Shown here: one piece after another, positions 13,050 through 32,706 of the stretch
Layout: each line of letters begins with the position of its first letter
Numbering within the stretch: position 1 is the stretch's first letter
Source: Candidatus Dojkabacteria bacterium
Lineage (GTDB): Bacteria > Patescibacteria > Dojkabacteria > SC72
Length of the DNA: 45,592 nt
Reading direction: 5' to 3'
NCBI GenBank assembly: GCA_023229785.1
Contig: JALNYV010000014.1
Location: forward strand, 1 to 45,592
Notes under the pieces: generated by a model
Databases searched by the model: none
Told to the model about the DNA's origin: nothing
The model's input: the letters and a program-made list of their open reading frames with translations, nothing else
Translations under genes and position numbers: made by a program

Positions 13050-14093
13050 ATGAAATTAACAAAAGAACAATTAAAATTAATTGAGCTAATGATTAATGAT
13101 GGCTATATTAATTGTCAAAAACATCCAAACGTTGATTTATGGATTTATAATTATAGTAATAAAACTCAATTTGATAAGATGTGGAATGAAGCTACTATAA
13201 TGTGTAGAGGTCTTATTTTAGATGGGGATAATAATATAGTAGCTTTACCATTTAAAAAGTTTTTTAATTATGGAGAAGATATTAATTTAAAAATTCCAAA
13301 CGAAGAACCAATTATAAGTGAAAAAATAGATGGTTCATTAGGTATTTTATATTGGATTAAAGATACCCCATATATTGCTACACGTGGTTCATTTATTTCT
13401 GAACAAGCTGTTTGGGCTACTAAATGGTTACATAAATATCTTGAAAATGGTGGAGAATGTATGAATAAAAATGCTACTATGTTATTTGAAATTATTTATC
13501 CTGAAAATAGAATAGTTGTTGATTATAATGGATATGAGGGATTAATTCACCTTGCCCAAATAGATTTAAATACTGGTAAGCAAATTATAAATCCTTATAT
13601 TCCAAAAGGAATTAAATCTGCGAAAATAGTTAAAAATCAAGATTTAGAAACACTTAAGAATATAAAAATAGATAATCAAGAGGGCTTTGTAATTTTTTAT
13701 CCTAAATCAGAATTAAGATTAAAGGTTAAATTTGAAGAATATGTTAGATTACACAGATTAATTACTGGTGTGAATGAAAGGCGTATTTGGGATATACTTC
13801 GTAATAATCAAGATATAAATGAATTGCTTGATAGAGTACCTGATGAATTTTATAATTGGGTTAAAAAAATAATTGATGATTTAAAACACACGTATGCTAG
13901 AATTCATAAAGAAGCTATAGCTGTTAGTTTATCAGTCCAAAATTTAGATACAAGAAAAGAACAAGCGGAAATAATTAAAAAATATAAATATCCATCTGTA
14001 GTATTTAGTTTATTAGATGGCAAAAATCCTAATCAAATTATTTGGAAACTATTAAAACCAAAATCTAATAAACCATTTAAAATAGAAATATAG
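13050..14093 (+). CDS. T4 Rnl1-like RNA ligase
   Basis: A 347-aa nucleotidyltransferase. Motif I is E-K92-I-D-G-S, with K92 as the AMP-accepting lysine; R-G at 53-54 lies upstream as in Rnl1-type ligases. Motif III is F-E-I-I (146-149), motif IV E-G-F-V-I-F (211-216) and motif V L-R-L-K-V-K-F (223-229). The C-terminal 110 residues are helical. Such enzymes reseal tRNAs cut by host anticodon nucleases. No polynucleotide kinase/phosphatase partner is recognisable; the metallophosphoesterase at 1600 is far away. Starts in a TAATATG cassette. Confidence 0.85.
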   Translation: MKLTKEQLKLIELMINDGYINCQKHPNVDLWIYNYSNKTQFDKMWNEATIMCRGLILDGDNNIVALPFKKFFNYGEDINLKIPNEEPIISEKIDGSLGILYWIKDTPYIATRGSFISEQAVWATKWLHKYLENGGECMNKNATMLFEIIYPENRIVVDYNGYEGLIHLAQIDLNTGKQIINPYIPKGIKSAKIVKNQDLETLKNIKIDNQEGFVIFYPKSELRLKVKFEEYVRLHRLITGVNERRIWDILRNNQDINELLDRVPDEFYNWVKKIIDDLKHTYARIHKEAIAVSLSVQNLDTRKEQAEIIKKYKYPSVVFSLLDGKNPNQIIWKLLKPKSNKPFKIEI

Positions 14094-18707: not shown

Positions 18708-19215
18708 AACAATTTTAGCAGACCCCCCTTGGAACTTGGGAGAGATGAGAATGAAGAAGGCAAGACCAAAAGCTATGTTGCCCTATCCTAAGATGAAAAC
18801 AGAGGCTATATGTGCCTTACCAGTGGCTGGACTTGCTGACGATAACTGCAATCTATTCCTTTGGACGACACACACTTTTTTGCCTGATGCCTTTGAAGTT
18901 ATGAAGGCGTGGGGATTTCGCTATCATTGTTTGCTTACTTGGGATAAAACTAATGGTATCCCTTGCTGGGGATTTAAAAGAAAAACAGAATTTGTTTTAT
19001 ACGGCTATAAAGGAAAAATTACAGTCAATCAAACAGGGAAATTTATTCATACATTGTTCACCGAAAAGCTAACAGAACATTCTAAAAAACCAAACATTTT
19101 CTATGAGATTTTAGAAAGCAATACGCCAGAACCGAGAATAGAATTATTTGCCAGAAATAAAAGAGACGGCTGGGATGTCTGGGGTAACGAAGTAGAAAGT
19201 GACATATCCCTATGA
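18697..19215 (+). CDS. MT-A70 family DNA N6-adenine methyltransferase
   Basis: A 172-aa protein with the MT-A70 (PF05063) signature: catalytic D-P-P-W at residues 9-12, L-F-L-W-T-T-H in the middle, then the K-T-E-F-V-L-Y-G strand and the C-terminal E-L-F-A-R ... G-W-D-V-W-G-N-E that binds the cofactor. Phage members methylate adenines in their own DNA, which can block host restriction. No cognate restriction enzyme is nearby. It overlaps the IS607 recombinase start by 4 bp. Confidence 0.9.
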   Translation: MKYKTILADPPWNLGEMRMKKARPKAMLPYPKMKTEAICALPVAGLADDNCNLFLWTTHTFLPDAFEVMKAWGFRYHCLLTWDKTNGIPCWGFKRKTEFVLYGYKGKITVNQTGKFIHTLFTEKLTEHSKKPNIFYEILESNTPEPRIELFARNKRDGWDVWGNEVESDISL

Positions 19216-19829
19216 AAATATACAAAATAACAGAAGCAAGTGCGTATCTCGGGATAAGTATAAATTCATTAAAGACGCTTGCCAACAACAACAAAATAAA
19301 TTCTTTCAAAACAGACGGAGAGCATAGGCGTTTTCGGGAAGATGATTTGGACACCTATATGGGAGTTAAGAAAGAAAAACAAGAACGGCTAACTGTTATT
19401 TATGCCAGATGTTCTACCGCCAAACAGAAAGAAAACCTTGAAAGGCAGAAAGACAGACTAAGAAAACACGCCGAAGAAAAGGGATACAAGTATTTAATGA
19501 TAGACGAAATTGCAAGCGGAATAAACGAGAAACGGAAAGGGATACACAAGTTAATCAAGATGTGTTTTGAGGGAAAGGTTGAACGGATTTTAATCGAATA
19601 TAAAGATAGACTGGCAAGATTTGGCTACGAGTATCTGGACGCAATTTTTAGGAATTTAGAGATAATTGTTGAGATAGTGGAAATTAAAGAAAAGAAGTAT
19701 GAAGAGGAATTAGCAGAGGATATTATGAAGATTCTTACTTGCTACTCTGCCCGATATTACGGGGCGAGAGGCGGTCGAAAGAAGAAAATTGAACCAGTTA
19801 AAGAACCCAACGAATCTAATGGAATTTAA
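19212..19829 (+). CDS. tnpA: IS607-type serine recombinase/transposase without a TnpB partner
   Basis: A 205-aa protein. Residues 1-50 are a MerR-like excisionase helix-turn-helix (I-T-E-A-S-A-Y-L-G-I-S...H-R-R-F-R-E-D-D-L). The catalytic domain has Y64-A-R-C-S68-T with S68 as nucleophile, and E-Y-K-D-R-L-A-R-F-G (129-138) with the conserved arginines. This order is specific to IS607-family TnpA. No tnpB gene follows, and I could not define element ends. It is tied by a 4-bp overlap to the methylase, so it may be domesticated or a remnant. Confidence 0.88.
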   Translation: MKIYKITEASAYLGISINSLKTLANNNKINSFKTDGEHRRFREDDLDTYMGVKKEKQERLTVIYARCSTAKQKENLERQKDRLRKHAEEKGYKYLMIDEIASGINEKRKGIHKLIKMCFEGKVERILIEYKDRLARFGYEYLDAIFRNLEIIVEIVEIKEKKYEEELAEDIMKILTCYSARYYGARGGRKKKIEPVKEPNESNGI

Positions 19830-21121: not shown

Positions 21122-21616
21122 ATGTCAATAATATACAAAAGTAAAAGAATAGGAAAAAACGGAAAACCATTTTGGCTTTACAAATTCCGTACTTTAATGG
21201 ATAATATAGATAAGACTAGCTCTTTTGCTCAACAAGACCAGTATGTAAAATTTGGGAAGTTTCTTCGTAAGACTAAAATAGACGAATTACCTCAGCTTAT
21301 TAATTGGATTAAAGGTGATATTAATTTCTTTGGTTATCGTCCAGAAGAAGAACGAGCTTGGAACATTTTGCCTTCTGAAATAAGAGAAATATTATCTAAA
21401 AATAAACCAGGTATTATAGATCTTAGTTCACTTCACTTTTATGATGAAGAAACCTTATTACAAGTAGGAGATGCTAATAAAACTTACTGGGAAGTTATAA
21501 GACCAATGAAACTTACTTTACAGATGTTTTACTCTGAAAATAGATGTTGGATTTTAAACCTCGCTATTATTTATATATATTTTCGTAAAGCTTTAAAATC
21601 ACTATGGAAAAAGTAA
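21122..21616 (+). CDS. Bacterial sugar transferase (PglC/WcaJ-type phosphoglycosyl transferase core)
   Basis: A 164-aa protein of the PF02397 family, which moves a phosphosugar from a nucleotide sugar to undecaprenyl phosphate at the membrane. Seen: K-F-R-T (21-24), L-R-K-T-K-I-D54-E55-L-P-Q-L with the catalytic D-E pair, and G-D-I-N-F-F-G-Y-R-P-E (65-75). The N-terminal ~25-40 residues of the family, including the re-entrant membrane helix, are absent, and a stop lies in frame just upstream. A hydrophobic helix near residues 140-155 may anchor it instead. First gene of the cluster. Confidence 0.85.
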   Translation: MSIIYKSKRIGKNGKPFWLYKFRTLMDNIDKTSSFAQQDQYVKFGKFLRKTKIDELPQLINWIKGDINFFGYRPEEERAWNILPSEIREILSKNKPGIIDLSSLHFYDEETLLQVGDANKTYWEVIRPMKLTLQMFYSENRCWILNLAIIYIYFRKALKSLWKK

Positions 21617-22257
21617 AACAAATACAAAAAGATATTTTAATTGCTAGTTACGAAGCAGGCGCTTGTCATTTGGGGTCTGCTTTAAGTTGTGTAGATATTT
21701 TACACGACCTTTTTTATATCCAAAAAATAAAACCAGAACAATTTTTATTTGCTAAAGCCAGTGGAGTAGCCTGCTACTACGCTATCCTTGCTGATTTAGG
21801 GTATTTTCCTAAAGACAAGCTAGGTGAATATCTAAAACAGTATCCTTTGCCTTCTAAAGAAGTTGCTGGAATCCAACACTCCTTTGGAAGTTTAGGCCAC
21901 GGATTAAGTGTAGCTACTGGACTGGCTTTATCAGATAGAAATAGAGATATATATGTTCTACTTTCAGATGGAGAGTGTCAGGAAGGTTCTACCTTAGAAG
22001 CAGTAGCTTTTATAGGGCATCATAATCTTACTAATCTTCACGTCATAGTAGACAACAATAAAATACAGGCATTAGGGCATACTAGAGATATAATAAAAAT
22101 GGATACTATTTGGAATTATATGGAAAACAACTTACCTAACTGTAAGATAGTAAATACAGTCAAGGGTCAGGGGATAGATTTTATGGAAGACTCAGCTGAC
22201 TGGCACTACAAGAACCTAACTAAAGAACTTTTAGATAAAGCATTATGCCAGATTTAA
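21604..22257 (+). CDS. Transketolase N-terminal (TPP-binding) subunit
   Basis: A 217-aa thiamine-diphosphate domain. C-H22-L-G-S-A matches the G-H-x-G-S box, G-S-L-G-H-G (95-100) follows, and S-D-G-E-C-Q-E-G-S (121-129) with V-D-N-N-K (149-153) is the Mg/TPP motif. It is paired with a separate gene for the pyrimidine domain. Split transketolases are known from archaea and many sugar clusters. The usual N-subunit is about 270 aa, so this one is short. In a glycan cluster, transfer of a two-carbon ketol unit to make an unusual sugar precursor is a reasonable inference. Confidence 0.85.
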   Translation: MEKVKQIQKDILIASYEAGACHLGSALSCVDILHDLFYIQKIKPEQFLFAKASGVACYYAILADLGYFPKDKLGEYLKQYPLPSKEVAGIQHSFGSLGHGLSVATGLALSDRNRDIYVLLSDGECQEGSTLEAVAFIGHHNLTNLHVIVDNNKIQALGHTRDIIKMDTIWNYMENNLPNCKIVNTVKGQGIDFMEDSADWHYKNLTKELLDKALCQI

Positions 22258-22712
22258 GAAAAGACTTTTTTGAAATAATGTGTGAACTAGCTGAAAAGGA
22301 CAAGGACATTATAGTTCTTGTCGGAGATTTAGGTTATAACTTTTATGAGGATTTTGCTAAAAGATTTCCTGAACAGTTTATTAACGCAGGATGTGCAGAG
22401 CAAAATATGATAGGAGTAGCTGCAGGACTTGCTCTCGGAGGGAAAAAACCTTTCGTTTACTCTGGGAGCATTTTCTTGGCTAGTAGAGGCCACGAGTTTA
22501 TACGAGATGATGTAGCTTATGCCAATCTTAATGTAAAGTTGGTAGGAACAGGTGCTAGTGGATTTTTAGGTCATACCCATAACTGGCAAGGAACAGAGAA
22601 CGAACTTGATTTGCTTAAGAACCTACCTAATTTACAAATATCTTTTCCAAAAGATAAAGAAGAATTAAAGAAAGCCCTAATCAACGAAGGAGCAAGTTAT
22701 ATAAGAATATGA
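22245..22712 (+). CDS. Transketolase C-subunit reduced to the pyrimidine-binding domain
   Basis: A 155-aa protein overlapping the N-subunit gene by 13 bp. G-D-L-G near residue 27, N-A-G-C-A-E52-Q-N-M-I-G-V-A-A-G-L-A (47-63) carries the glutamate that activates thiamine diphosphate in its partner. The normal C-subunit is near 300 aa; here the final transketolase C-domain is missing altogether, while the end of the gene overlaps the next start cleanly (ATGA). The loss therefore looks settled, not a sequencing break. Confidence 0.83.
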   Translation: MPDLRKDFFEIMCELAEKDKDIIVLVGDLGYNFYEDFAKRFPEQFINAGCAEQNMIGVAAGLALGGKKPFVYSGSIFLASRGHEFIRDDVAYANLNVKLVGTGASGFLGHTHNWQGTENELDLLKNLPNLQISFPKDKEELKKALINEGASYIRI

Positions 22713-23332
22713 GAAGACTAATATACCAACACAAAAACAGTCCAGAAGCCTATAACAAAATATACGAAGAACGTCAGGGCAAGGTAGACTGGCAAGATAT
22801 TCGTAGACAGAAGGCTATGCTTAAATATTTTAATGGTGGCCCTATCTTAGATATAGGTTGCCTTGACTCCAGTGTACCTGATATTCTTATAGAATTGCGA
22901 TTAGAGGGTATTATAAGCTATTTAGGTACTGATACAGCCACAGAGGCTATAAGGCATCAAAATGAGCTATTTTATGACGATAAAGGGGTAAATTTTATAG
23001 TAGATGATATATTCAATACTAAAATAGATAGACAATTTGATTATGTTTTACTAGGAGAAGTTTTAGAACATTTAGAAGAACCAGATAAGGCTGTACATCA
23101 AGCTATGAGATTAGTTAAGTCTAATGGTTATCTAGTAATATCTGTTCCCTATGAAGAATACAAGGAGTTTGGAGCAGTTGATAAAGACAGACATATTTGG
23201 AGTTTTGATAAAAAAGACTTTGAATTTCTAAAACAATACGGAAAAGTAAAGTTTAAAGTATTAGGTAGTCAATATTTTCCTTATAAATATTGCTGGCCAC
23301 AATTAATAATTTACATAAAAAAATATGATTGA
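22709..23332 (+). CDS. Class I SAM methyltransferase (glycan cluster)
   Basis: A 207-aa protein with the SAM-binding motif I P-I-L-D-I-G-C-L-D-S (about 45-54), an acidic end of strand 2 (G-T-D-T-A), and F-D-Y-V-L-L-G-E-V-L-E-H-L-E-E-P as motif post-II. A G-Y-L-V-I-S-V-P strand and H-I-W-S-F-D follow, usual in sugar or lipid O-methyltransferases. Its placement between sugar enzymes suggests methylation of a sugar or of a sugar precursor. The start overlaps the upstream stop by 4 bp. Confidence 0.8.
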   Translation: MRRLIYQHKNSPEAYNKIYEERQGKVDWQDIRRQKAMLKYFNGGPILDIGCLDSSVPDILIELRLEGIISYLGTDTATEAIRHQNELFYDDKGVNFIVDDIFNTKIDRQFDYVLLGEVLEHLEEPDKAVHQAMRLVKSNGYLVISVPYEEYKEFGAVDKDRHIWSFDKKDFEFLKQYGKVKFKVLGSQYFPYKYCWPQLIIYIKKYD

Positions 23333-24440
23333 TTTTATAAATAGTTCTTATAGACGTTATTATAGCGAACACCGAGAAGAAATTTTAGACGCAATAGATA
23401 GGTGTTTTAAAGGTGGCGATTTCATCTTAAGAAAAGATGTAGAAGAGTTTGAGCAGAAACTTTGTGCTTTCACTGGGGCTAAGTATGCTGTTGGTGTGAA
23501 CTCAGGAACAGATGCTCTTAAACTTTCATATAAAGCAATGGGTATTAAGCCAGGAGACGAGGTTATTACAGTATCTCATACCTTCATAGCTCCCATAGAA
23601 GAAATTGTTCATCACGGTGGAATACCTATTTTAATAGATGTTGGAGAAGACGGACTTATGAACGTAGATGAGATAGAAAGTGCTATCAGTCCCCAGACAG
23701 TAGGCATAGTGCCAGTCCACTTATCTGGCAAGGTCTGTGATATGAAACGAATAAACGAGATAGCCGAGAAGCACGGACTTTGGGTAGTAGAAGATGCCTG
23801 TCAGGCTTTAGGAGCTAAATTAGATGGTAAAAGTGCTGGAACAATGGGTAATACAGGATGTTTTTCCTTTATCAGTCCTAAGACTTTAGGTGGTGCTGGA
23901 GATAATGGAGGTATTATAACTAACGATTTTGAAACTTATCAGAGACTTCTATTACTAAGAAATCATTGGAACATAACTCAGGGAGCTTTACACGGACTTA
24001 ATATTCCTCAACCAGAGGTAATGGACTGGGGTTATAACTCAAGAATGGATAATATTCAAGCTGCTATTTTAAATATAAAATGGAAATACTACCCAGAAAT
24101 GTTAAAGAGACGAAAAGAGATAGGTGAGATGTATAACGAAGGACTTAAAGATTTACCTATTCTTCTTCCAACCTCACAACCAGAACAAATCTATCAGGAG
24201 TATATCATCCGAGTTAAAAACAGAGAAAAGTTTATGAAGCATATGGTAGATAACGGAATAGAGCTGTTAGTAAGAGATACTATTCCTAATCATAAGCAAA
24301 GGGGTTTAAAGTTAGACCATTTTGATTTACCAGTTACTGAAGAAATGGCCACTGATAATGTTCGTATTCCTTGTTATCCAGAACTTGAGGATGAAGAGGT
24401 AGCAGAGATAATAAAAGTTGTAAAATCATTTTACAAGTAA
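23325..24440 (+). CDS. DegT/DnrJ/EryC1 sugar aminotransferase
   Basis: A 371-aa PLP enzyme of full family length (PF01041). G-T-D-A (61-64) binds phosphate, V-V-E-D157-A-C-Q (154-160) contacts the PLP ring nitrogen, and S-F-I-S-P-K186-T-L-G-G-A-G-D carries the Schiff-base lysine. It would aminate a keto-sugar nucleotide, such as the product of the dehydratase encoded next. The 24-bp gap after it holds a promoter. Confidence 0.92.
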   Translation: MIDFINSSYRRYYSEHREEILDAIDRCFKGGDFILRKDVEEFEQKLCAFTGAKYAVGVNSGTDALKLSYKAMGIKPGDEVITVSHTFIAPIEEIVHHGGIPILIDVGEDGLMNVDEIESAISPQTVGIVPVHLSGKVCDMKRINEIAEKHGLWVVEDACQALGAKLDGKSAGTMGNTGCFSFISPKTLGGAGDNGGIITNDFETYQRLLLLRNHWNITQGALHGLNIPQPEVMDWGYNSRMDNIQAAILNIKWKYYPEMLKRRKEIGEMYNEGLKDLPILLPTSQPEQIYQEYIIRVKNREKFMKHMVDNGIELLVRDTIPNHKQRGLKLDHFDLPVTEEMATDNVRIPCYPELEDEEVAEIIKVVKSFYK

Positions 24441-24458
24441 TTTAAAATAAGTTATAAT
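24431..24458 (+). promoter_or_regulatory. Sigma-70 promoter ending 6 nt before ATG 24465
   Basis: TTACAA (24431-24436), 16-nt spacer, consensus TATAAT (24453-24458), then 6 nt to ATG. The -35 lies in the last codons of the aminotransferase gene. It would allow the second half of the glycan cluster to be expressed on its own as a leaderless message. Confidence 0.6.
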
Positions 24459-24464
24459 TATTCT

Positions 24465-25274
24465 ATGAAAAATGAAAGAATACTAATCACAGGTGGAGCT
24501 GGTAGTATTGGATCTGAACTAGCTAAGCAACTAAACAAAGAAAATCAAGTATTTATACTAGATATTAACGAGACTGAATTATTTAACCTTATTGAATCAG
24601 AAAAGATGAATGGTGTAGTTGGCGATGTCAGAGACAAGGAAGTATTAGAAGAAATATTTGCTAGATTTCAACCAGCCTATGTGTTTCACTGTGCTGCTTT
24701 AAAGCACGTTACACCTTCAGCTTGGACACCTAAAATATATATAGATACCAATATTGGTGGAACTATAAATGTGCTAGAATTAGCCAAGAAATATGGTGTT
24801 AAGATGATTAATATATCTACTGATAAGGTAGTTAATCCTGAATCTATTATGGGGGCTACTAAGAAAGTAGCCGAGTTGGCTGTTAAAAACGATAAAGAAG
24901 TATCAGTAAGATTTGGAAATGTATTAGGTTCTAGAGGTTCTTTACTTGAAATATGGAATAGACAAATGAAAGAAGGCAAACCTTTGACTGTTACTGATTC
25001 TAGAATGGAACGATATTTTATGGAAATACCAGATGCTTGTGAGCTTTTAATTGAAGCAGCAGAGGTAGGAGAAGGAGGCCAAATTCTTATAATGGATATG
25101 GGTGAACCTGTTAATATATTAGAACTTGCCAAAGAGATTATAACTAAAAAGAAATATGGTTTAGAGCCAGAAATTATAGGAGCTAGACCAGGAGAGAAAT
25201 TAAGTGAAGACTTAATGACTACTACTGAAAAAGAGTTAGCAGTCAAGAAAGATAAATTTTATATAATTAATTAA
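24465..25274 (+). CDS. CapD/PglF/FlaA1-type NDP-sugar 4,6-dehydratase (short SDR)
   Basis: A 269-aa NAD-dependent enzyme of PF02719. G-G-A-G-S-I-G (10-16) binds NAD, H-C-A-A-L-K-H-V (75-82) is family-specific, and S-T-D-K121-V-V-N-P-E-S-I-M129-G-A-T-K133 is the active site with Met in place of the SDR tyrosine, as in CapD/PglF/WbpM. The membrane domain of the long members is absent, as in FlaA1/PseB. It should make a 4-keto-6-deoxy sugar nucleotide, the natural substrate of the aminotransferase beside it. Confidence 0.9.
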   Translation: MKNERILITGGAGSIGSELAKQLNKENQVFILDINETELFNLIESEKMNGVVGDVRDKEVLEEIFARFQPAYVFHCAALKHVTPSAWTPKIYIDTNIGGTINVLELAKKYGVKMINISTDKVVNPESIMGATKKVAELAVKNDKEVSVRFGNVLGSRGSLLEIWNRQMKEGKPLTVTDSRMERYFMEIPDACELLIEAAEVGEGGQILIMDMGEPVNILELAKEIITKKKYGLEPEIIGARPGEKLSEDLMTTTEKELAVKKDKFYIIN

Positions 25275-25279
25275 TATGT

Positions 25280-25969
25280 ATGAGAAAAAAAGAAAGCCCA
25301 AAGGCTATTAAAAACGTAATAAAAAAAGTTGTTAAAGAACAAAAAAAAGTTGTTAACAAACTAGAAGATATTAAATACTGGCAGAAAAGACCAGCAGATG
25401 ATACTCGTAAAGACTGGCGTTTAGACAGGGATACTGACTGGGTAAGTGAATATTGGGGAAGCCAAGCACATCCTCATAGGTCATTAATCACCGAAGCTCT
25501 TGTAAGAATAGGCGATTTTGGTAGTTTGTTAGAAGTTGGTTGTAATTGTGGTCCTAACTTACAGCAAATTAGAAACAAATATCCTAAAACTAAACTTTAT
25601 GGTATAGATGCTAGTCCAGTAGCAGTAGAAAAAGGACAAAGATTATTTGGAACAGAGATTCAATTAGGCACAGCTGATAAACTTCCAGTAGATGTGGATG
25701 TTATATTATCTGATGCTGTTTTAATTTATGCTGAGCCAGATTATTTTAAGAAGATAGCAGAAGAATTTAGTAAGAAAGCTAAGAAAGCTATTATTTTAGT
25801 TGAGTGGTATGATGAATCTAAGACTGGTGTTGAGAAAGATGGACACTGGGCTAGAGATTATCAATTTAAAGGTTTTGAGTTAAAAGATAAAATTAAAATA
25901 ACAGAACAACAATGGCCAAACAAGGCTTGGAGTCAAAATGGATACGTATTCGTGTTTCTTCGTCAATAG
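25280..25969 (+). CDS. Class I SAM methyltransferase with basic coiled N-tail
   Basis: A 229-aa protein. Residues 1-30 are Lys-rich and helical. L-L-E-V-G-C-N-C-G-P-N-L (83-94) is SAM motif I, Y-G-I-D-A-S-P is motif II, and D-V-I-L-S-D-A-V-L-I-Y-A follows. It ends with a hydrophobic Y-V-F-V-F-L strand typical of the fold. The upstream TAATATG cassette has its ATG at 25276, which opens only an 11-codon overlapping frame; the real start is ATG 25280. Substrate unknown, probably a glycan. Confidence 0.8.
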   Translation: MRKKESPKAIKNVIKKVVKEQKKVVNKLEDIKYWQKRPADDTRKDWRLDRDTDWVSEYWGSQAHPHRSLITEALVRIGDFGSLLEVGCNCGPNLQQIRNKYPKTKLYGIDASPVAVEKGQRLFGTEIQLGTADKLPVDVDVILSDAVLIYAEPDYFKKIAEEFSKKAKKAIILVEWYDESKTGVEKDGHWARDYQFKGFELKDKIKITEQQWPNKAWSQNGYVFVFLRQ

Positions 25970-26703
25970 CTAATTTTAAAGATAAAGCAGAACGTAGATT
26001 AAGTTACGAGGGAGATTATACGTTATTTCTTGGGTTGTATCACTGGATAGACTATCTAAAGTTTTTACTAACTTTAGGTAAAAAACGAGTATTATGGTGT
26101 GGTTCAGATATATTAAACTTAAATAAGTTTTGGGCGTTCATTTTAAAACTTACTAAAGCAGAACACATCTGTGAGAATCAGGTAGAACAAGGTGTTTTAT
26201 CGGGATTTGGTATTGAGCCTAGAGTCCAACCAGTTCTTTTGACTAACCCCAAGAGATATAAGAGATGTTTTAGACCTAGTAAATACCCAGAAGTGTTTGT
26301 TAATTGCCACGAGGGTAGAACAAAGGAGTATGGATTAGAAACTATAATTAAGATAGCTCCTAAGCTACCTGAAGTATTGTTTCATATTTATGGAATAGAA
26401 CCTTACGATCCGTTTCTTCCTAATAACATAGTATTTCACGGTAAAGTTAGTGAAAGTGAGTTTGATAAGGATATTAAGCAGTATCAAGGAGCATTACGCC
26501 TTAACTTATTTGACGGATTTGGAGAGGTATTAGCTAAGTCTATACTTATGGGACAATATCCTATATCTAAGATTCAATATCCAGGTATTACATCTTATGT
26601 TAATGAAAACGACTTAATAACTAAAATAAGAGCATTAAAATATAAAAAGAAACCTAATCCACAAGCAGATTTATGGAGAACATTACTCAGCAAGAAAATA
26701 TAA
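25912..26703 (+). CDS. Glycosyltransferase, GT-B-like
   Basis: A 263-aa protein overlapping the methyltransferase gene by 58 bp; no other ATG exists until far downstream. Landmarks are V-L-W-C-G-S-D-I-L-N, then H-I-C-E-N (a donor-domain turn), F-V-N-C-H-E-G-R, an L-F-H-I-Y-G strand, and D-G-F-G-E-V-L-A-K-S-I-L-M-G-Q-Y-P, the E-x7-E-like nucleotide-sugar site of GT4-type enzymes. It is smaller than a typical 350-aa GT4, so the acceptor domain is reduced. Acceptor unknown. Confidence 0.72.
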   Translation: MAKQGLESKWIRIRVSSSIANFKDKAERRLSYEGDYTLFLGLYHWIDYLKFLLTLGKKRVLWCGSDILNLNKFWAFILKLTKAEHICENQVEQGVLSGFGIEPRVQPVLLTNPKRYKRCFRPSKYPEVFVNCHEGRTKEYGLETIIKIAPKLPEVLFHIYGIEPYDPFLPNNIVFHGKVSESEFDKDIKQYQGALRLNLFDGFGEVLAKSILMGQYPISKIQYPGITSYVNENDLITKIRALKYKKKPNPQADLWRTLLSKKI

Positions 26704-27626
26704 ATTTACATCTGATATATACTCCTTTTACTGGTGTAGGTCTACACGGAGGATATAGGGGAGATGAATGGTTTTCTAATCGTATAGATGTATTTAAAAA
26801 TAATACTCTTAAGAGTTTATTAAATCAGACTAGCAAGAATTTTGTTCATTGGATTTCATTTAGACCAGAAGAACGTGGACATCCTTTAGTGGTAGAATTG
26901 GCTAAGTATTTAGATTCATTTGATAGTTATAAGTATATATTTACTTTTAACGGACTAATGTATCACGATGATAAGTTTACCAACTATACTTTAAAGACTA
27001 GATTTAAGAATTTTTTACAGATGTATCACGATAATCTTAAACAGAATCCGTTTAAGTTACTCAAGTTAGTATGGGAAAATAAGAATAAGACTCTAGTTCC
27101 ACGAATATATAGTTCTTTAATAGATATAGCTAAGTACATAGGTACTAATTATAAATGGATATATCTTACTAGGATAGATTCAGACGATATGTTAGCTAGT
27201 GATGCTGTTGATTTAATACAGAAACAGAACCCAGAGTGGAAAAGAGCTTTAGTATTTAAGAACGGATATATATATAACTGTAAAACTGGACAAGTAGCAG
27301 AGTGGCTACCACCAACTAATCCTCCTTTTCATACTATAATATTTCCAGCTTCTACTTTCTTTGATTCTCAGGCTCATTATGAATATTATGACGACTTTAA
27401 AAGCCACGAAGATACTACTAGAGTATTTAATCCTATAGTATTACCAGATTATAAGTATATGGTTGCTTATCACGGTAGAGGTCATATATCTACAGCTTGG
27501 GAATCTCCAGTCATAAAGAAAATTCATCACAGAATAAAATATAAGAGAATAAATCCTTTTATTGGTAAAATCTTATCTAGCGAAATAAAGAAAGATTTTG
27601 GAATATGGGGACAAAAAATTGTATGA
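26673..27626 (+). CDS. Putative rhamnosyltransferase-like glycosyltransferase
   Basis: A 317-aa protein resembling PF11316 (putative rhamnosyl transferase). It has R-x-D-V-F-K-N-N-T-L-K-S-L-L-N-Q-T near the N-terminus, W-I-S-F-R-P, Y-L-T-R-I-D-S-D-D (164-172; the D-x-D-type metal site), a G-Y-I-Y strand, and Y-H-G-R-G-H with S-T-A-W near the end. The start overlaps the preceding GT by 31 bp. It would add a sugar in the glycan assembled by the cluster. Confidence 0.78.
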   Translation: MENITQQENINLHLIYTPFTGVGLHGGYRGDEWFSNRIDVFKNNTLKSLLNQTSKNFVHWISFRPEERGHPLVVELAKYLDSFDSYKYIFTFNGLMYHDDKFTNYTLKTRFKNFLQMYHDNLKQNPFKLLKLVWENKNKTLVPRIYSSLIDIAKYIGTNYKWIYLTRIDSDDMLASDAVDLIQKQNPEWKRALVFKNGYIYNCKTGQVAEWLPPTNPPFHTIIFPASTFFDSQAHYEYYDDFKSHEDTTRVFNPIVLPDYKYMVAYHGRGHISTAWESPVIKKIHHRIKYKRINPFIGKILSSEIKKDFGIWGQKIV

Positions 27627-28333
27627 CACATTTAGTAATAGGAAAAGGAGAAGTGGGTAAAGCAATAGCTAAAATATTTAAAGCTGATACCTTTGATATT
27701 AAAAATGGAGGTATGGAAGACGGACATTATGATGTATTACACATTTGCTTTCCTTATTCAGAAACATTTATCTTAGATGTAAAGAAGTATGATAGAATTT
27801 ATAGTCCTGATATAATTATTGTACACTCTACTGTGCCTATAGGGACTACTAGAAAATTAGGTTATAAAGCAGTACATTCTCCAGTGAGAGGAGTTCATCC
27901 TAATTTAGAAGAAGGTATAAGAACATTTGTTAAATATATAGGGGCAACAGATACAGAAACTGGCTATGAAGTAACACAATTATTTGAAGAATATGACTTA
28001 ACACCTAGCAGTATTTGTGACCCAGAAGATACAGAAGCTGGTAAACTTTTATCTACTACTTACTATGGTTGGAATATTCTATTTGAAAAGCTAGTACATA
28101 AGTTCTGTAAAGATAATAGTCTAGACTTTGATATAGTATATACAGACTTTAATAACACCTATAATGATGGTTATAAAGAACTAGCTATGGATTATGTAGT
28201 AAGACCAGTATTAAAACACATAGAGGGAGAAATAGGTGGTCATTGTGTAATCCCTAACTGTAAGATATTAGATTTTGACCCAGCAAAAATAATAGCAACA
28301 TACAATGAAGAAATTAAAAAGAGTAAAAGTTAG
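27623..28333 (+). CDS. Short UDP-glucose/GDP-mannose dehydrogenase-like oxidoreductase
   Basis: A 236-aa protein; ATG 27623 is chosen because it gives an ATGA overlap with the GT stop and places the Rossmann strand at the N-terminus (V-I-G-K-G-E-V-G). H-S-T-V-P-I-G-T-T (68-76), H-S-P-V-R-G-V-H-P (85-93), a lysine at 141 and G-G-H-C-V-I-P-N (205-212) with the catalytic-type Cys match the UDP-sugar dehydrogenase pattern. The family is usually about 400 aa; the C-terminal NAD/UDP domain is missing. It may oxidise a sugar or sugar precursor. Confidence 0.72.
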   Translation: MTHLVIGKGEVGKAIAKIFKADTFDIKNGGMEDGHYDVLHICFPYSETFILDVKKYDRIYSPDIIIVHSTVPIGTTRKLGYKAVHSPVRGVHPNLEEGIRTFVKYIGATDTETGYEVTQLFEEYDLTPSSICDPEDTEAGKLLSTTYYGWNILFEKLVHKFCKDNSLDFDIVYTDFNNTYNDGYKELAMDYVVRPVLKHIEGEIGGHCVIPNCKILDFDPAKIIATYNEEIKKSKS

Positions 28334-28918: not shown

Positions 28919-29233
28919 ATGGCAGGAGATATATCAAGAAAAAATGGAGAACTTGGTGGCAGACCCAAAGGAGAAAGTCCTGTTACTAAGTTAAAGAAGA
29001 AACTTAAACAGCATTTTAGAGATGATGAAATTGATGATTTAATAGCTAGTGCTAAAGTTAAAGCTGAAACATCTGATAAAATGTTAATGTTTTTATTAGA
29101 GCATATATTTGGTAAAGCTAGACAGAATATAGGTTTAGATGGTGGAGAAGATAATGAGCCTATTAAAATGGATATGACAGTTGATGAAGCAATAAATAAA
29201 ATATATGGCAGTAAAGGAAGCGACAGCAAATAA
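28919..29233 (+). CDS. Putative small terminase subunit
   Basis: A 104-aa protein just upstream of the large terminase, overlapping it by 29 bp. It opens with G-E-L-G-G-R-P-K-G, has a basic helix (K-L-K-K-K-L-K-Q-H-F) and then L-M-F-L-L-E-H-I-F-G-K-A-R-Q-N-I-G-L-D-G, a common pattern in small phage proteins that precede terL. It would recognise the packaging site. The size is at the low end for TerS. A reverse-strand frame over the same DNA lacks any start signal. Confidence 0.65.
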   Translation: MAGDISRKNGELGGRPKGESPVTKLKKKLKQHFRDDEIDDLIASAKVKAETSDKMLMFLLEHIFGKARQNIGLDGGEDNEPIKMDMTVDEAINKIYGSKGSDSK

Positions 29234-30650
29234 CTTAGTTCATACTGCTTATTTTAGTGGAGTACCTAAAGACCAATTAAAGAACTTTTTATTAAGAGGA
29301 TATAGTCCATTACCTTGGCAGATGAAGTTTCACGCTGAGGCAAGGAGAGCTGATCAGGAAGGATATGCTACTGATGTAGGTTGTGGTGGAGCTAGAGGCC
29401 CTGGTAAGAGCCACGCAGTATTTGCTCAAGTTACATTAGATGATTGTCAGAGAATACCAGGATTAAAAGCATTGTTCCTTAGACAAACAGGCAGAGCTGC
29501 TAAAGAATCATTTGAAGACTTAATTGATAGAGTGTTATCTGGTAAGATAAACTATAAGTACAGAGGACAGCCAGGACAAGTATCGTTTGAAAATGGCTCT
29601 AAGGTTATTCTAGGAGGATTTAAAGACGAAAGAGATATAGACCAGTACATTGGAATTGAATATGATATTATAGCTATAGAAGAGTTAAACCAGCTTACAG
29701 ATAACAAGGTAGAAAAGCTAAAAGGTTCTTTAAGAACAAGTAAAAAGAATTGGCGACCTAGAACTTACAACTCATTTAACCCTGGTGGTATAGGTCATTT
29801 GTATGTTAAAGAGAAGTTTGTAGACCCTTATTATCAGCACAAACAGACTAAGACAGTATTTATACCTAGTACTTATTTGGACAATCCTTATCTTAATGTA
29901 GAATATACTGATTATTTAGAGAATTTAAGTGGTAATCTAGGTAAGGCTTGGAGAGAGGGTAACTTTGATATATTTGATGGACAGTTCTTTGGAGAGTGGA
30001 ATGTAATAAAGCACGTTATAAATCCTTTTGCTGTACCTAAACATTGGAACAGATACAGAGCTTATGACCACGGTAGAAATGCCCCAGCTTGTTGTAAGTG
30101 GTATGCAGTAGATGAATATGGACAAGTGTTTGTTTATAGGGAATTGTATAAAGCTGGAATGAATGTAGATGAGTTGGCTAAGGAGATTGTAAGATTATCA
30201 GAAGGCGAAGAGTATGTCTTTTCAGTAGCTGACCCTAGTATATTTGCTCAACACGGATTTGTAGATAGTTTTGGTGGACAAACAATAGCTGAATCATTTG
30301 CTAGACAAGGTGTTATATGGACACCAGCAAGTAATCGTAGAGTAGATGGTTGGTCTATTATGCATCAGTATTTAGACTGTAAGAGTGGCGACCCTAAGAT
30401 GAGATACTTTAATACTTGCCACGATAGTATTAGAACAATACCAGGACAAATACACGATGATAAGAAACCAGAAGATTTAGATACTAAGGGTGAAGACCAC
30501 GCAGTAGATACAGACAGATATTTCTTATTAGCACTACACGAATCATCAGCACCTAGACTAAAGACTGAAACTGAATTAAAATTAGATAAGATGAAGGAGT
30601 CTAGTGGACTATCCCCAGAAGCATTAAATGAATTTTATTATAAAAAATAG
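29205..30650 (+). CDS. terL: Large terminase subunit
   Basis: A 481-aa packaging ATPase and nuclease. Walker A is G-G-A-R-G-P-G-K-S (61-69) and Walker B is Y-D-I-I-A-I-E-E (153-160). S-F-N-P-G-G (190-195) fits the coupling motif. The RNase-H-like nuclease begins at Y-R-A-Y-D288-H-G, with V-A-D343-P and a late D-H-A-V-D-T-D-R-Y as further metal ligands. Length is normal. It docks on the portal encoded directly downstream. Whether the enzyme makes headful or fixed-end cuts cannot be told from the sequence alone. Confidence 0.95.
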   Translation: MAVKEATANNLVHTAYFSGVPKDQLKNFLLRGYSPLPWQMKFHAEARRADQEGYATDVGCGGARGPGKSHAVFAQVTLDDCQRIPGLKALFLRQTGRAAKESFEDLIDRVLSGKINYKYRGQPGQVSFENGSKVILGGFKDERDIDQYIGIEYDIIAIEELNQLTDNKVEKLKGSLRTSKKNWRPRTYNSFNPGGIGHLYVKEKFVDPYYQHKQTKTVFIPSTYLDNPYLNVEYTDYLENLSGNLGKAWREGNFDIFDGQFFGEWNVIKHVINPFAVPKHWNRYRAYDHGRNAPACCKWYAVDEYGQVFVYRELYKAGMNVDELAKEIVRLSEGEEYVFSVADPSIFAQHGFVDSFGGQTIAESFARQGVIWTPASNRRVDGWSIMHQYLDCKSGDPKMRYFNTCHDSIRTIPGQIHDDKKPEDLDTKGEDHAVDTDRYFLLALHESSAPRLKTETELKLDKMKESSGLSPEALNEFYYKK

Positions 30651-30651
30651 T

Positions 30652-32706
30652 ATGGAAGAACAATACAAAGGAGGGTTTAAAGAAAGCCTACTTAACAAGC
30701 GAGAGTTAGAAGACTTTAAACACGCTCAAAAAAGAATAGAACAGCTTAAAGATAATCGTAAAGACCATTATGGTGTTGATTTAGATGACCTATGGGCTGA
30801 AGCTGATAGAGATTATGCTCCTCATAGGCTTAATTCTACAGGTAAACGATATGTTGTTACTGATGAAGATAAAGGTTGGAGAGGTGCTTTAGTTAGATTA
30901 GGTAGTAGTGATTGGCAGTCAGATATTGCTCAGTCTAATCCGTTTGTTAAAATACAAACAGCTTTATCTATTTTAGTAGACCAGAACCCTAGTGGTGTAT
31001 TTACTCCAGTATTAAAGAAATTCCAAGCTACTACTGAACTTATACATCAGTTGTATAAGCGTAGTTGGGAAGTAGCTAGAAGTAAATCACAGCTTAAACT
31101 ATTTATATTTAACCTAACTAAGTATGGTTGGGCTATTGGTCGTACATTTCCTTTGAAATTAGTAAGAACAGTTAAAGTATTAAAGGTTCTTAATCCTGAT
31201 GACCCATCAAAGAACGAGTACGAAGAAAAGAAAGTTGTAGACTATGATGATGTTATGAGAGAGAATCTAGACCCTCGTAATACTTGGATAGATGATATGA
31301 CCAGACCAAATGATTATGATTCAATGAACGACTGGTGTTATCGTAAGGTCTATACAATGGAACAAGCCAAGAAAGAGTTTGGTAAGTATAAGTTTTGGAA
31401 GTATGTTAAGCCTGGTGGAACTTTAGACGAAACCTTAACTGATAACGCTAAAAAGAGTGATAAGGATACAGTTAGAGATGACTTAGTAGAGGCTTACTTC
31501 TACGAGAACCTAGCTAGAGATTTATTCTATGTAGAATTTAATGGAGTACCTCTTGTTATAGAACCACTACCAGTATCAAACTATAATGGCTCTAAGAAAC
31601 TATCTTGTTGGCATACTTATTGGAATATTAGACACGCTGAATCTCCATACGGTATAGGGGTATATGAAGCTATTAGATACCAGAACTCAATGTTGGATAG
31701 AATTACTAATATGACTATTGACCAGTTGACCTTGAGTATTTATAAGATGTTCTTTTATCAAGGAACTGATAAGCTAACTGAAACAGGAGACTTTAGAATC
31801 TCCCCAGGGGTAGGCAAACAAGTATTAGATCCTAAAAGTATTAATTGGTTGGAAACACCTGGTCCAGGTAGAGATGCTTGGGAAGGATTACAGTATTTCC
31901 AAGATAAGATAGATGAGTATTCAGGAATAGGCGACCCTCTATTAGGGGCTGTAACAGGTAAAACAGCCTTTGAGATAGCTCAAGCTAAGGAAGCTGCCTT
32001 AAAGCGTCTTAAAGACCCTTTAAACAATATTCTAGAAGCTCTTAACACTGAGGCTTATATTACTATTTCCCTTATGCAGTTAATGTATTCTATACCTGAA
32101 ACTCACGTTATATCTGACCCTGACTTAATGCAGAGATATTTAGAAGAAGTACAGGCAGACCCAGAGCTATATGAAAGAAATGAAAATGATGAATTTGTAG
32201 CTAAGATATACAGACAGTTTCCACTTAACCTAGATGAAGACGAAAACAAGAACTTAATAGAAACTGATGAAACTAAATTCTTTAGAATTAAACCTAAATA
32301 TCTAAACTGGGAGGGTATAGTAAATATCAAGAGTCAATCAATACTTTCACCTTCTAAACAGATTGATAAGGCAATGGATATTGAAATGTATAACCTATTA
32401 ACTCCTTGGGTTTCTATACCTAATGGACAACAGTTATTTGGTAAAATGGCTAAATCACTTATTAAGCATTACGATAAAGACCCTAAGGAAATATTACCTG
32501 ATAGCTGGATAAACGAACAACCACAGCAACCACAGCAGTTACCTCAGCCTCAAGGACAACCACAGGGACAACAAGGAGGAGGATTATTTACTAAAGCTAA
32601 TACAAACATAGGAACTCAGACAGGGCAGAATCCTCAAGCTGGTGGAGGTTTATTTCAAAAGATAGGACAAATGGCATCTAAATTAAATCCATTTAGAAAT
32701 CAATGA
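30652..32706 (+). CDS. Portal protein
   Basis: A 684-aa protein from ATG 30652, one base after the terL stop; an in-frame ATG at 30628 lies inside terL and is less likely. Size, position after terL and motifs such as L-D-P-R-N-T-W-I-D-D (wing), Q-N-S-M-L-D-R-I-T-N (stem helix) and the G-D-P-L-L-G-A-V-T-G-K-T-A-F-E turn point to a P22-like podovirus portal. The last ~60 residues are a Gln/Pro/Gly-rich low-complexity tail. It forms the dodecameric DNA entry ring. Confidence 0.85.
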   Translation: MEEQYKGGFKESLLNKRELEDFKHAQKRIEQLKDNRKDHYGVDLDDLWAEADRDYAPHRLNSTGKRYVVTDEDKGWRGALVRLGSSDWQSDIAQSNPFVKIQTALSILVDQNPSGVFTPVLKKFQATTELIHQLYKRSWEVARSKSQLKLFIFNLTKYGWAIGRTFPLKLVRTVKVLKVLNPDDPSKNEYEEKKVVDYDDVMRENLDPRNTWIDDMTRPNDYDSMNDWCYRKVYTMEQAKKEFGKYKFWKYVKPGGTLDETLTDNAKKSDKDTVRDDLVEAYFYENLARDLFYVEFNGVPLVIEPLPVSNYNGSKKLSCWHTYWNIRHAESPYGIGVYEAIRYQNSMLDRITNMTIDQLTLSIYKMFFYQGTDKLTETGDFRISPGVGKQVLDPKSINWLETPGPGRDAWEGLQYFQDKIDEYSGIGDPLLGAVTGKTAFEIAQAKEAALKRLKDPLNNILEALNTEAYITISLMQLMYSIPETHVISDPDLMQRYLEEVQADPELYERNENDEFVAKIYRQFPLNLDEDENKNLIETDETKFFRIKPKYLNWEGIVNIKSQSILSPSKQIDKAMDIEMYNLLTPWVSIPNGQQLFGKMAKSLIKHYDKDPKEILPDSWINEQPQQPQQLPQPQGQPQGQQGGGLFTKANTNIGTQTGQNPQAGGGLFQKIGQMASKLNPFRNQ

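What the first reader, a model, noticed from the sequence alone, without database searches (positions are those of the whole stretch)
21122..28333. Phage-borne glycan biosynthesis and transfer cluster
Ten consecutive, mostly overlapping genes encode a phosphoglycosyl transferase core, split transketolase, two methyltransferases, a DegT aminotransferase, a CapD/PglF dehydratase, two glycosyltransferases and a UDP-sugar dehydrogenase-like protein. Dehydratase, aminotransferase and PglC-like transferase are the core steps of bacillosamine-type lipid-linked sugar assembly, but the acetyltransferase is absent and transketolase and methylation are added. No replication genes are kept, yet 7.2 kb is spent on sugars, so the benefit must be large. 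Host surface remodelling to block superinfection, or glycosylation of the virion, are the leading ideas.
Basis: partly seen in the sequence, partly recalled or inferred. Interest (0 to 1): 0.9.

Follow-up and report, generated by a model that had tools for sequence, protein, structure and literature searches.

The report
Membrane-free glycan cassette in phages
This virus of bacteria carries a ten-gene kit that looks able to make and attach an unusual sugar; a number of uncultured relatives keep versions of the kit beside their DNA-packaging genes, and its enzymes lack the membrane parts such enzymes often have, so it may coat the virus itself rather than the host cell.

Summary
The ten genes are real, apparently intact and phage-borne, and not a one-off capture. 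Thirty-eight distinct IMG/VR contigs carry the second glycosyltransferase (GT2); 34 have terminase or portal within 6 kb, same strand. One (L101/L155) has all ten genes, then terminase and portal. But none of 20 tested records from the terminase scan has TKC. Two features look new. The phosphoglycosyl transferase lacks the re-entrant membrane helix said to occur in all members, as do 101 of 131 rows scored. The split transketolase lacks its C-terminal domain. No ORF in 39 loci has four or more membrane segments (0 of 764), so no flippase, polymerase or ligase was seen. GT1, GT2 and MT2 track the packaging lineage (one change each); transketolase and dehydratase genes look shuffled. Best reading: a cytosolic glycosylation module with a fixed transfer side and exchangeable sugars, probably decorating virion proteins. 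'Bacillosamine-type' is partly supported: PglF-like dehydratase, but an aminotransferase far from PglE and no acetyltransferase. Host surface remodelling remains possible; host and acceptor are unknown. New variant of a known kind (phage-borne glycan clusters).

The parts
21122..21616 (+). PGT: PglC-type phosphoglycosyl transferase catalytic domain without the N-terminal re-entrant membrane helix (164 aa)
   Evidence: PF02397 from profile position 34; in-frame stop three codons upstream; D54-E55 and R49 invariant in 47 helix-less homologues; model pLDDT 88 matches PglC 8g1n, E 1.5e-9
21604..22257 (+). TKN: thiamine-diphosphate-binding half of a split transketolase-like enzyme (217 aa)
   Evidence: PF00456 2.4e-11; best PDB match is the N-terminal chain of a split transketolase, 6yak; H22, D122-G123, N152, H201 conserved
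22245..22712 (+). TKC: pyrimidine-binding half (155 aa), no C-terminal transketolase domain
   Evidence: PF02779 1.1e-20; E52 in 29 of 29 mini and 25 of 25 longer rows; most of the best 120 homologues are 152-159 aa
22709..23332 (+). MT1: SAM-dependent methyltransferase
   Evidence: PF08241 8e-12; relatives in L050/L160, L101/L155, L145/L152, L159
23325..24440 (+). DegT-type sugar aminotransferase (PLP lysine K186)
   Evidence: PF01041 1.3e-91; K186 in at least 90% of 27 rows
24465..25274 (+). DH46: short soluble PglF/CapD-type UDP-sugar 4,6-dehydratase
   Evidence: PF02719 5e-81; 5bju best PDB match; D120, K121, M129, K133 in at least 90% of 21 rows
25280..25969 (+). MT2: methyltransferase related to pseudaminic-acid-associated methylase
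   Evidence: TIGR03587 8.5e-17, below its cut-off
25912..26703 (+). GT1: GT-B-fold glycosyltransferase
   Evidence: no Pfam match; model matches SenB, GumK, WbnH and others
26673..27626 (+). GT2: glycosyltransferase of the Rhamno_transf type
   Evidence: PF11316 2.3e-5; S170-D171-D172 invariant in the 14 rows of A4
27605..28333 (+). UGD-like: short NDP-sugar-dehydrogenase-like protein with GGHC motif
   Evidence: TIGR03026 5.6e-6, below cut-off; phrog_9148; C214 in at least 90% of 12 rows
28919..29233 (+). probable terminase small subunit next to the cassette (by position)
   Evidence: no PHROG match; a 27% match lies just upstream of terL in L149 and L158
29205..30650 (+). terminase large subunit
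   Evidence: phrog_2 7e-40, PF04466
30628..32706 (+). portal / head-tail connector
   Evidence: phrog_332 4e-8

Best explanation
A recurrent, modular, cytosolic glycosylation cassette of uncultured tailed phages. DH46 and DegT make an amino-6-deoxy nucleotide sugar; the mini-transketolase pair and methyltransferases modify it; the UGD-like enzyme may oxidise it or a second sugar; the helix-less phosphoglycosyl transferase with GT1 and GT2 assembles a short glycan on an acceptor reached from the cytosol, most likely a virion protein. The transfer side (GT1, GT2, MT2) is inherited with the packaging genes, while sugar-making genes are exchanged between phage lineages, so related virions would carry different sugars. 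Shown: gene content, conserved catalytic residues, absence of membrane parts, location, patterns of inheritance. Inferred: substrates, order of steps, virion acceptor, benefit (evading host recognition or altering adsorption).
For: 34 of 38 distinct GT2 contigs have terminase or portal within 6 kb on the same strand; in L056, L150 and L151 GT2 abuts the portal gene. L101/L155 has the same ten genes followed by terL and portal. 0 of 764 ORFs of at least 80 aa in 39 loci (window included) have four or more hydrophobic segments, against 4 in the bacterial locus L069 and 11 in four other bacterial loci; no cassette protein of the window has a 19-residue mean hydropathy above 1.4. The helix is missing from 101 of 131 PGT rows. 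GT2, GT1 and MT2 need one lineage change each (shuffled means 8.7, 6.3, 5.6); TKC 4 (4.5), TKN 3 (3.7), DH46 2 (2.9); the AU test rejects a single window-lineage clade for TKC, TKN, DegT and DH46 (p 2e-42, 3e-4, 6e-8, 4e-3).
Against: No acceptor identified and no virion data. PGT keeps R49, which by my count aligns with PglC Arg88, named as critical for polyprenol phosphate, so a membrane-lipid acceptor remains possible with host enzymes doing the rest. GT genes that track packaging genes could equally track the host. The cassette is not universal: 0 of 20 tested records from the terminase scan have TKC, and none of the 32 loci of that scan showed a cassette protein in the stretch held, though many are short. 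Four of 38 GT2 contigs lack terminase or portal within 6 kb of the stretch held. In the GT2 tree two rows of the other group, L051 and L157, sit next to the window's group. DegT is more clustered than the other sugar-making genes (3 changes, shuffled 5.4). One cassette PGT (L051) keeps the helix, and many other PGTs on viral contigs do too. Short soluble dehydratases are also found in bacteria (344-366-aa chains), so that trait is weak evidence. Cyanophage LPS clusters have been proposed to act on the host surface (PMC7824862, passages).
Confidence: 0.5

Rival explanations
1. Host surface remodelling: the PGT still primes undecaprenyl phosphate through its amphipathic helices, GT1 and GT2 extend it, and host flippase and ligase export a new glycan that blocks superinfection or changes adsorption.
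For: PGT family membership, catalytic dyad and R49; C-terminal helices present in the model; phage LPS clusters are known and were proposed to prevent superinfection (PMC3037559 and PMC7824862, passages); the enzymes resemble surface-glycan enzymes, including a bacterial cluster with the same gene order (L069).
Against: Membrane helix absent; no multi-pass membrane protein in 39 loci, the complete window included; location at packaging genes; PGT seen in only 7 of 38 GT2 contigs, although many loci are cut.
Confidence: 0.32
2. Modification of phage DNA or another nucleic acid by the glycosyltransferases.
For: Cytosolic enzymes near DNA packaging; this role has been proposed for phage glycosyltransferases in general (PMC10202952, passage).
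Against: No hydroxymethylase or similar base-modifying gene among the window proteins scanned; the 50 best fold matches of GT1 shown are small-molecule, polysaccharide, lipid and protein glycosyltransferases, none a DNA glucosyltransferase.
Confidence: 0.08
3. Cargo or headful filler with no function in infection, or a host fragment by misassembly.
For: Filler was raised for cyanophage LPS clusters (PMC3037559, passage).
Against: Conserved catalytic residues, recurrent gene sets and location in many contigs; continuous in two differently opened assemblies.
Confidence: 0.04

Closest known systems
Monotopic phosphoglycosyl transferases (PglC, WcaJ, WbaP type; PF02397)
   Same: Catalytic domain, Asp-Glu dyad, fold (PglC 8g1n, E 1.5e-9)
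   Different: No re-entrant membrane helix; a cited paper says all superfamily members have it (PMC10519829, passage)
Split transketolases (Carboxydothermus 6yak/6yaj)
   Same: Two chains, PP half then pyrimidine half; catalytic residues
   Different: No C-terminal domain; sits among sugar-nucleotide genes. The mini form also occurs in bacteria (9 of 12 genome loci, by frame length). Transketolase genes with one or two of three domains were noted in a Fonsibacter (SAR11) hypervariable region with many glycosyltransferases, function uncertain (PMC6811365, passage)
Pgl bacillosamine pathway (PglF, PglE, PglD, PglC)
   Same: PglF-like dehydratase, an aminotransferase, a PglC-like enzyme
   Different: No acetyltransferase among the ten; aminotransferase far from PglE; PglC helix missing; transketolase and methyltransferases added
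Pseudomonas WbpB/WbpE/WbpG-type pathway (recalled)
   Same: Related phage cassettes add a Gfo/Idh/MocA oxidoreductase, a QueC-like protein (just below Pfam's cut-off) of the sugar-amidotransferase kind and a class-I glutamine amidotransferase
   Different: None of these three among the window's ten; substrate unknown
Cyanophage LPS gene clusters (P-SSM2, S-SSM7, S-SM2)
   Same: Phage-borne sugar gene clusters
   Different: Those lie near tRNAs, hli03 or phoH, in large genomes (S-SSM7 232 kb, P-SSM2 252 kb; PMC3037559, passages); these lie at terminase and portal, on contigs of at most 49.6 kb among the 38
Paceibacterota MAG locus L069
   Same: PGT, TKN, mini TKC (156 aa), DegT (69% identical), dehydratase in the same order
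   Different: A minus-strand ORF lies between PGT and TKN; PGT has the helix (197 aa), dehydratase is 613 aa with membrane segments, multi-pass proteins nearby

Membership tests
Monotopic phosphoglycosyl transferase superfamily | Bac_transf domain and Asp-Glu catalytic dyad | tested here: met
   PF02397 4e-29; D54-E55 invariant in A2 (46 rows) and A3 (47 rows)
Monotopic phosphoglycosyl transferase superfamily | N-terminal re-entrant membrane helix | tested here: not met
   Match starts at profile position 34, stop codon just upstream; no hydrophobic N-terminus in 101 of 131 rows
Monotopic phosphoglycosyl transferase superfamily | PglC catalytic fold | tested here: met
   Model pLDDT 88; Foldseek 8g1n E 1.5e-9
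Transketolase | ThDP-binding PP and Pyr domains with catalytic residues | tested here: met
Transketolase | C-terminal transketolase domain | tested here: not met
   TKC is 155 aa; conserved columns beyond its end are empty in 29 of 29 mini rows and filled in 23-24 of 25 rows sorted by length as full (L046 was among those 25 by its length although its TKC part is mini)
Transketolase | Two-carbon transfer between sugar phosphates | not testable with these tools
   Substrate unknown
Bacillosamine (Pgl) pathway | PglF-type 4,6-dehydratase | tested here: met
   Best PDB match 5bju; D120, K121, M129
Bacillosamine (Pgl) pathway | PglE-type C-4 aminotransferase | tested here: inconclusive
   288 bits to 7b0d against 88 to 1o61, recalled as PglE; the best NCBIfam model is PseC (a C-4 enzyme, recalled), below its cut-off
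Bacillosamine (Pgl) pathway | PglD-type acetyltransferase | tested here: not met
   None among the ten cassette proteins
Wzx/Wzy-type O-antigen or capsule locus | Flippase, polymerase or ligase (multi-pass membrane proteins) | tested here: not met
   0 of 764 ORFs in 39 loci, the whole window included; the other loci are parts of genomes
Virion glycosylation system | Glycan on a virion protein | not testable with these tools
   No proteomic data

The most novel reading that the evidence does not exclude
The helix-less phosphoglycosyl transferase is a soluble enzyme that moves a sugar-1-phosphate onto a cytosolic, non-lipid acceptor such as a capsid or tail protein (phosphoglycosylation), and the mini-transketolase pair adds a two-carbon branch to the nucleotide sugar. 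These phages would then build virion coats with exchangeable branched sugars by a route that I know from no other virus.
Probability: 0.18. Interest if true: 0.92.

Novelty: new variant of a known kind. Interest (0 to 1): 0.72.

Why it matters
[quoted passage not shown] The split between a fixed transfer side and exchangeable sugar-making genes predicts that related phages differ in their sugars, a testable idea about how phages vary their surface or their host's.

Tried and rejected
A scan of the viral collection with the window's aminotransferase alone found no relative. A DNA-level search of 50,697 phage records gave only a 57-base match in the dehydratase gene, in 8 Maribacter phage records. 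Against the same records the dehydratase protein matched 234 records, all under 60% identity, TKC matched 20, all under 60%, and the UGD-like, portal and putative major head proteins matched none.

Host: the mini TKC appears in some bacterial MAGs titled Paceibacterota, Staskawiczbacteria and Nomurabacteria (which I recall as Patescibacteria), and L069 has the same gene order, so I tested that phylum as host. The portal protein matched 0 of 379 genomes of the phylum of G002 (the tool warns that an empty answer without a positive control shows nothing). Of 286 genomes of that phylum 186 had a TKC match, but most listed open frames were 300 aa or more, so the mini form is not general there. Host left open.

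Contig length as evidence that the mini TKC is phage-borne (the 120 listed are on contigs of 45,592 bases or less) was dropped as proof, since metagenomic contigs are short in general; gene context was used instead. A first idea that the transketolase substrate motif is lost was dropped when an alignment kept H112 in line. Helix loss as a single event is not shown: 88 helix-less rows lie in one set of 89 (support 0.56), 12 lie outside. Promoter-like and terminator-like sites were no more than in shuffles. Rfam at gathering scores: none. Profiles of GT1 and GT2 found no clear PDB relative. Correction on checking: the terminase-scan records tested number 20 of 32 loci, none with TKC; the two positives there, L050 and L056, had come from the TKC scan.

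Literature: searches without a useful hit are. Nothing on helix-less phosphoglycosyl transferases in phages appeared in the listings; from those listings I read passages only in PMC6133551 and PMC10519829, whose main texts do not contain the word phage. No wider claim is made.

Rows dropped: for the lineage trees L103, L154 and L159 (lineage unknown) and rows under 60% of the window protein's length; loci sharing an identical 60-aa GT2 stretch were merged (59 loci to 38). In one search eight duplicate or near-duplicate loci were dropped. L152 was labelled as window lineage from its contig's terminase and portal. In some searches the second group holds more than one terminase type.
Full report
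What is there. Ten overlapping or closely spaced plus-strand ORFs fill 21122-28333, followed by two short ORFs, a probable small terminase, the large terminase (29205-30650) and portal (30628-32706). The window ends in a 127-bp direct repeat, and an IMG/VR record of the same phage is opened inside the cluster, so the cluster is continuous within the phage genome.

The transferase. PGT is the catalytic half of a PglC-type enzyme: the Pfam match starts at profile position 34 and stop codons stand in frame just upstream. A homologue search gave 1,191 matches, best 120 listed. The closest are nearly all about 160-170 aa with no hydrophobic N-terminus; classical ones are about 190-230 aa with a strong helix. 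Scored on one alignment, 101 of 131 rows (120 listed proteins, the window's own included, plus 11 from loci) lack the helix; 88 of these fall in one set of 89 rows in a tree built on the catalytic part alone, 12 lie outside it. A few listed proteins are probably gene fragments at contig ends. The context of most database proteins is unknown; nine helix-less rows come from viral contigs. Helix-bearing PGTs also occur on viral contigs, including one cassette, L051. D54-E55, R49, K21 and R73 are invariant in 47 helix-less rows. The model (pLDDT 88) matches PglC. PMC10519829 (passage) states that all superfamily members include the re-entrant helix, and PMC6133551 (passage) speaks of its essentiality in PglC.

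The other enzymes. The transketolase halves match the split transketolase of Carboxydothermus, but TKC ends after the pyrimidine domain. Of 368 homologues the best 120 were listed, most of them 152-159 aa. Catalytic residues are kept in the mini and full-length sets alike. Three bacterial genomes with the mini form also have a separate TKC of 312-344 aa. DegT, DH46 and the UGD-like protein keep K186, D120/K121/M129 and C214 respectively in at least 90% of the rows aligned. GT1 is a GT-B enzyme by fold.

The cassette elsewhere. Scans with TKC, PGT, GT2 and UGD-like queries gave loci that I annotated with profiles built here. Thirty-eight distinct contigs carry GT2; 34 have terminase or portal within 6 kb on the same strand; if GT2 lay at random this would be expected in perhaps 40% (a rough figure of mine; binomial 3e-10). 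TKC was seen in 19 and PGT in 7 of the 38, minima because many loci are cut. L101/L155 holds the same ten genes as the window, MT1 in another place. L145/L152, from a phage with a 75% identical putative head protein, keeps DegT, MT2, GT1, MT1, GT2 and the UGD-like gene, but its record has no TKC and L145 and L152 show no PGT, TKN or dehydratase. Relatives add a Gfo/Idh/MocA oxidoreductase, a QueC-like protein and a glutamine amidotransferase.

Against universality: of 32 loci from the terminase scan none showed a cassette protein in the stretch held, and of the 20 records among them that I searched whole none has TKC. Many are short or distant (terminase 29-60% identical), and one of these records, G307 (L031), does carry GT2 (L152).

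No membrane parts. None of 764 ORFs of at least 80 aa in 39 loci has four or more hydrophobic segments; the bacterial locus L069 with the same gene order has four such ORFs. In L069 the PGT has its helix and the dehydratase is a 613-aa protein with membrane segments, against 259-286 aa for phage dehydratases. Short soluble dehydratases exist in bacteria too, so the transferase is the stronger case.

Inheritance. Contigs were put into two groups by their terminase and portal profiles. GT2 (33 rows), GT1 (25) and MT2 (27) each split with one change. DegT (21) needs 3, DH46 (17) 2, TKN (15) 3 and TKC (17) 4; for the last three this is about what shuffled labels give. A tree with one change keeps at most one on any subset, so the smaller row sets do not by themselves explain the difference. 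In the GT2 tree two rows of the second group, L051 and L157, lie beside the window's group. The window's TKN and TKC are 64% and 67% identical to L172 of the other group but only 31% and 41% to L155 of its own. The transfer side thus stays with the packaging genes while the sugar-making side is exchanged.

Interpretation. The data fit a cytosolic kit in which GT1 and GT2 recognise a fixed acceptor encoded or met by the lineage while the donor sugar varies. A virion protein is the simplest acceptor, given the lack of export parts and the place among packaging genes; this step is inferred. Host lipid acceptors remain possible because PGT keeps R49, which by my count corresponds to PglC Arg88 (numbering partly recalled).

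Sugar chemistry. UDP-GlcNAc 4,6-dehydration is likely. The aminotransferase is closest to 7b0d and then to enzymes that I recall as C-3 aminotransferases; the Gfo/Idh/MocA genes in relatives would fit a 3-keto route, but the window's ten lack one. Two-carbon branching by the transketolase pair is a guess from enzyme class alone.

Known context. Cyanophages carry LPS clusters of unknown function (PMC3037559, passages), proposed to block superinfection (PMC7824862, passages). Transketolases with one or two of three domains were noted in a SAR11-type hypervariable region among glycosyltransferase genes (PMC6811365, passage). I therefore file this as a new variant of a known kind, with the helix-less transferase family as its most surprising part.

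Noticed in passing
window 19212-19829: IS607-type serine recombinase (HTH plus resolvase domain; phrog_6620 transposase) just upstream of the cassette; no second transposon protein was recognised among the proteins scanned.
   Followed up: no
window 13050-14093: T4-type RNA ligase / tail-fibre attachment protein homologue (phrog_562, 7e-65).
   Followed up: no
L178, L168, L170 and others, between the cassette and the terminase: A small basic protein of about 125-160 aa with an IWDLEF..K..EIRE-like motif lies between cassette and terminase in many phages of the second group; a crude pattern found it in 12 of 38 loci. Some copies have an N-terminal membrane segment. Function unknown; possible partner or acceptor.
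   Followed up: partly
L046 9452-10462: TKC carries an N-terminal extension of about 180 aa that looks like a homing-endonuclease or zinc-finger piece (336 aa in all).
   Followed up: no
related loci such as L044 12056-12403, L057 19232-19636, L183: Left-handed-helix acyltransferase-like proteins near terminase and portal, in 19 of 38 loci by a crude motif count; the window cassette has none.
   Followed up: partly
window, whole: Many ORFs lack a Shine-Dalgarno-like site by eye; starts are often preceded by A/T-rich sequence such as TAAAATAAT. A possible host hint.
   Followed up: no
L069 7473-13563 (Paceibacterota MAG): Bacterial locus in the same gene order with a 69% identical DegT and membrane-bound forms of PGT and dehydratase; possible donor or relative.
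   Followed up: partly
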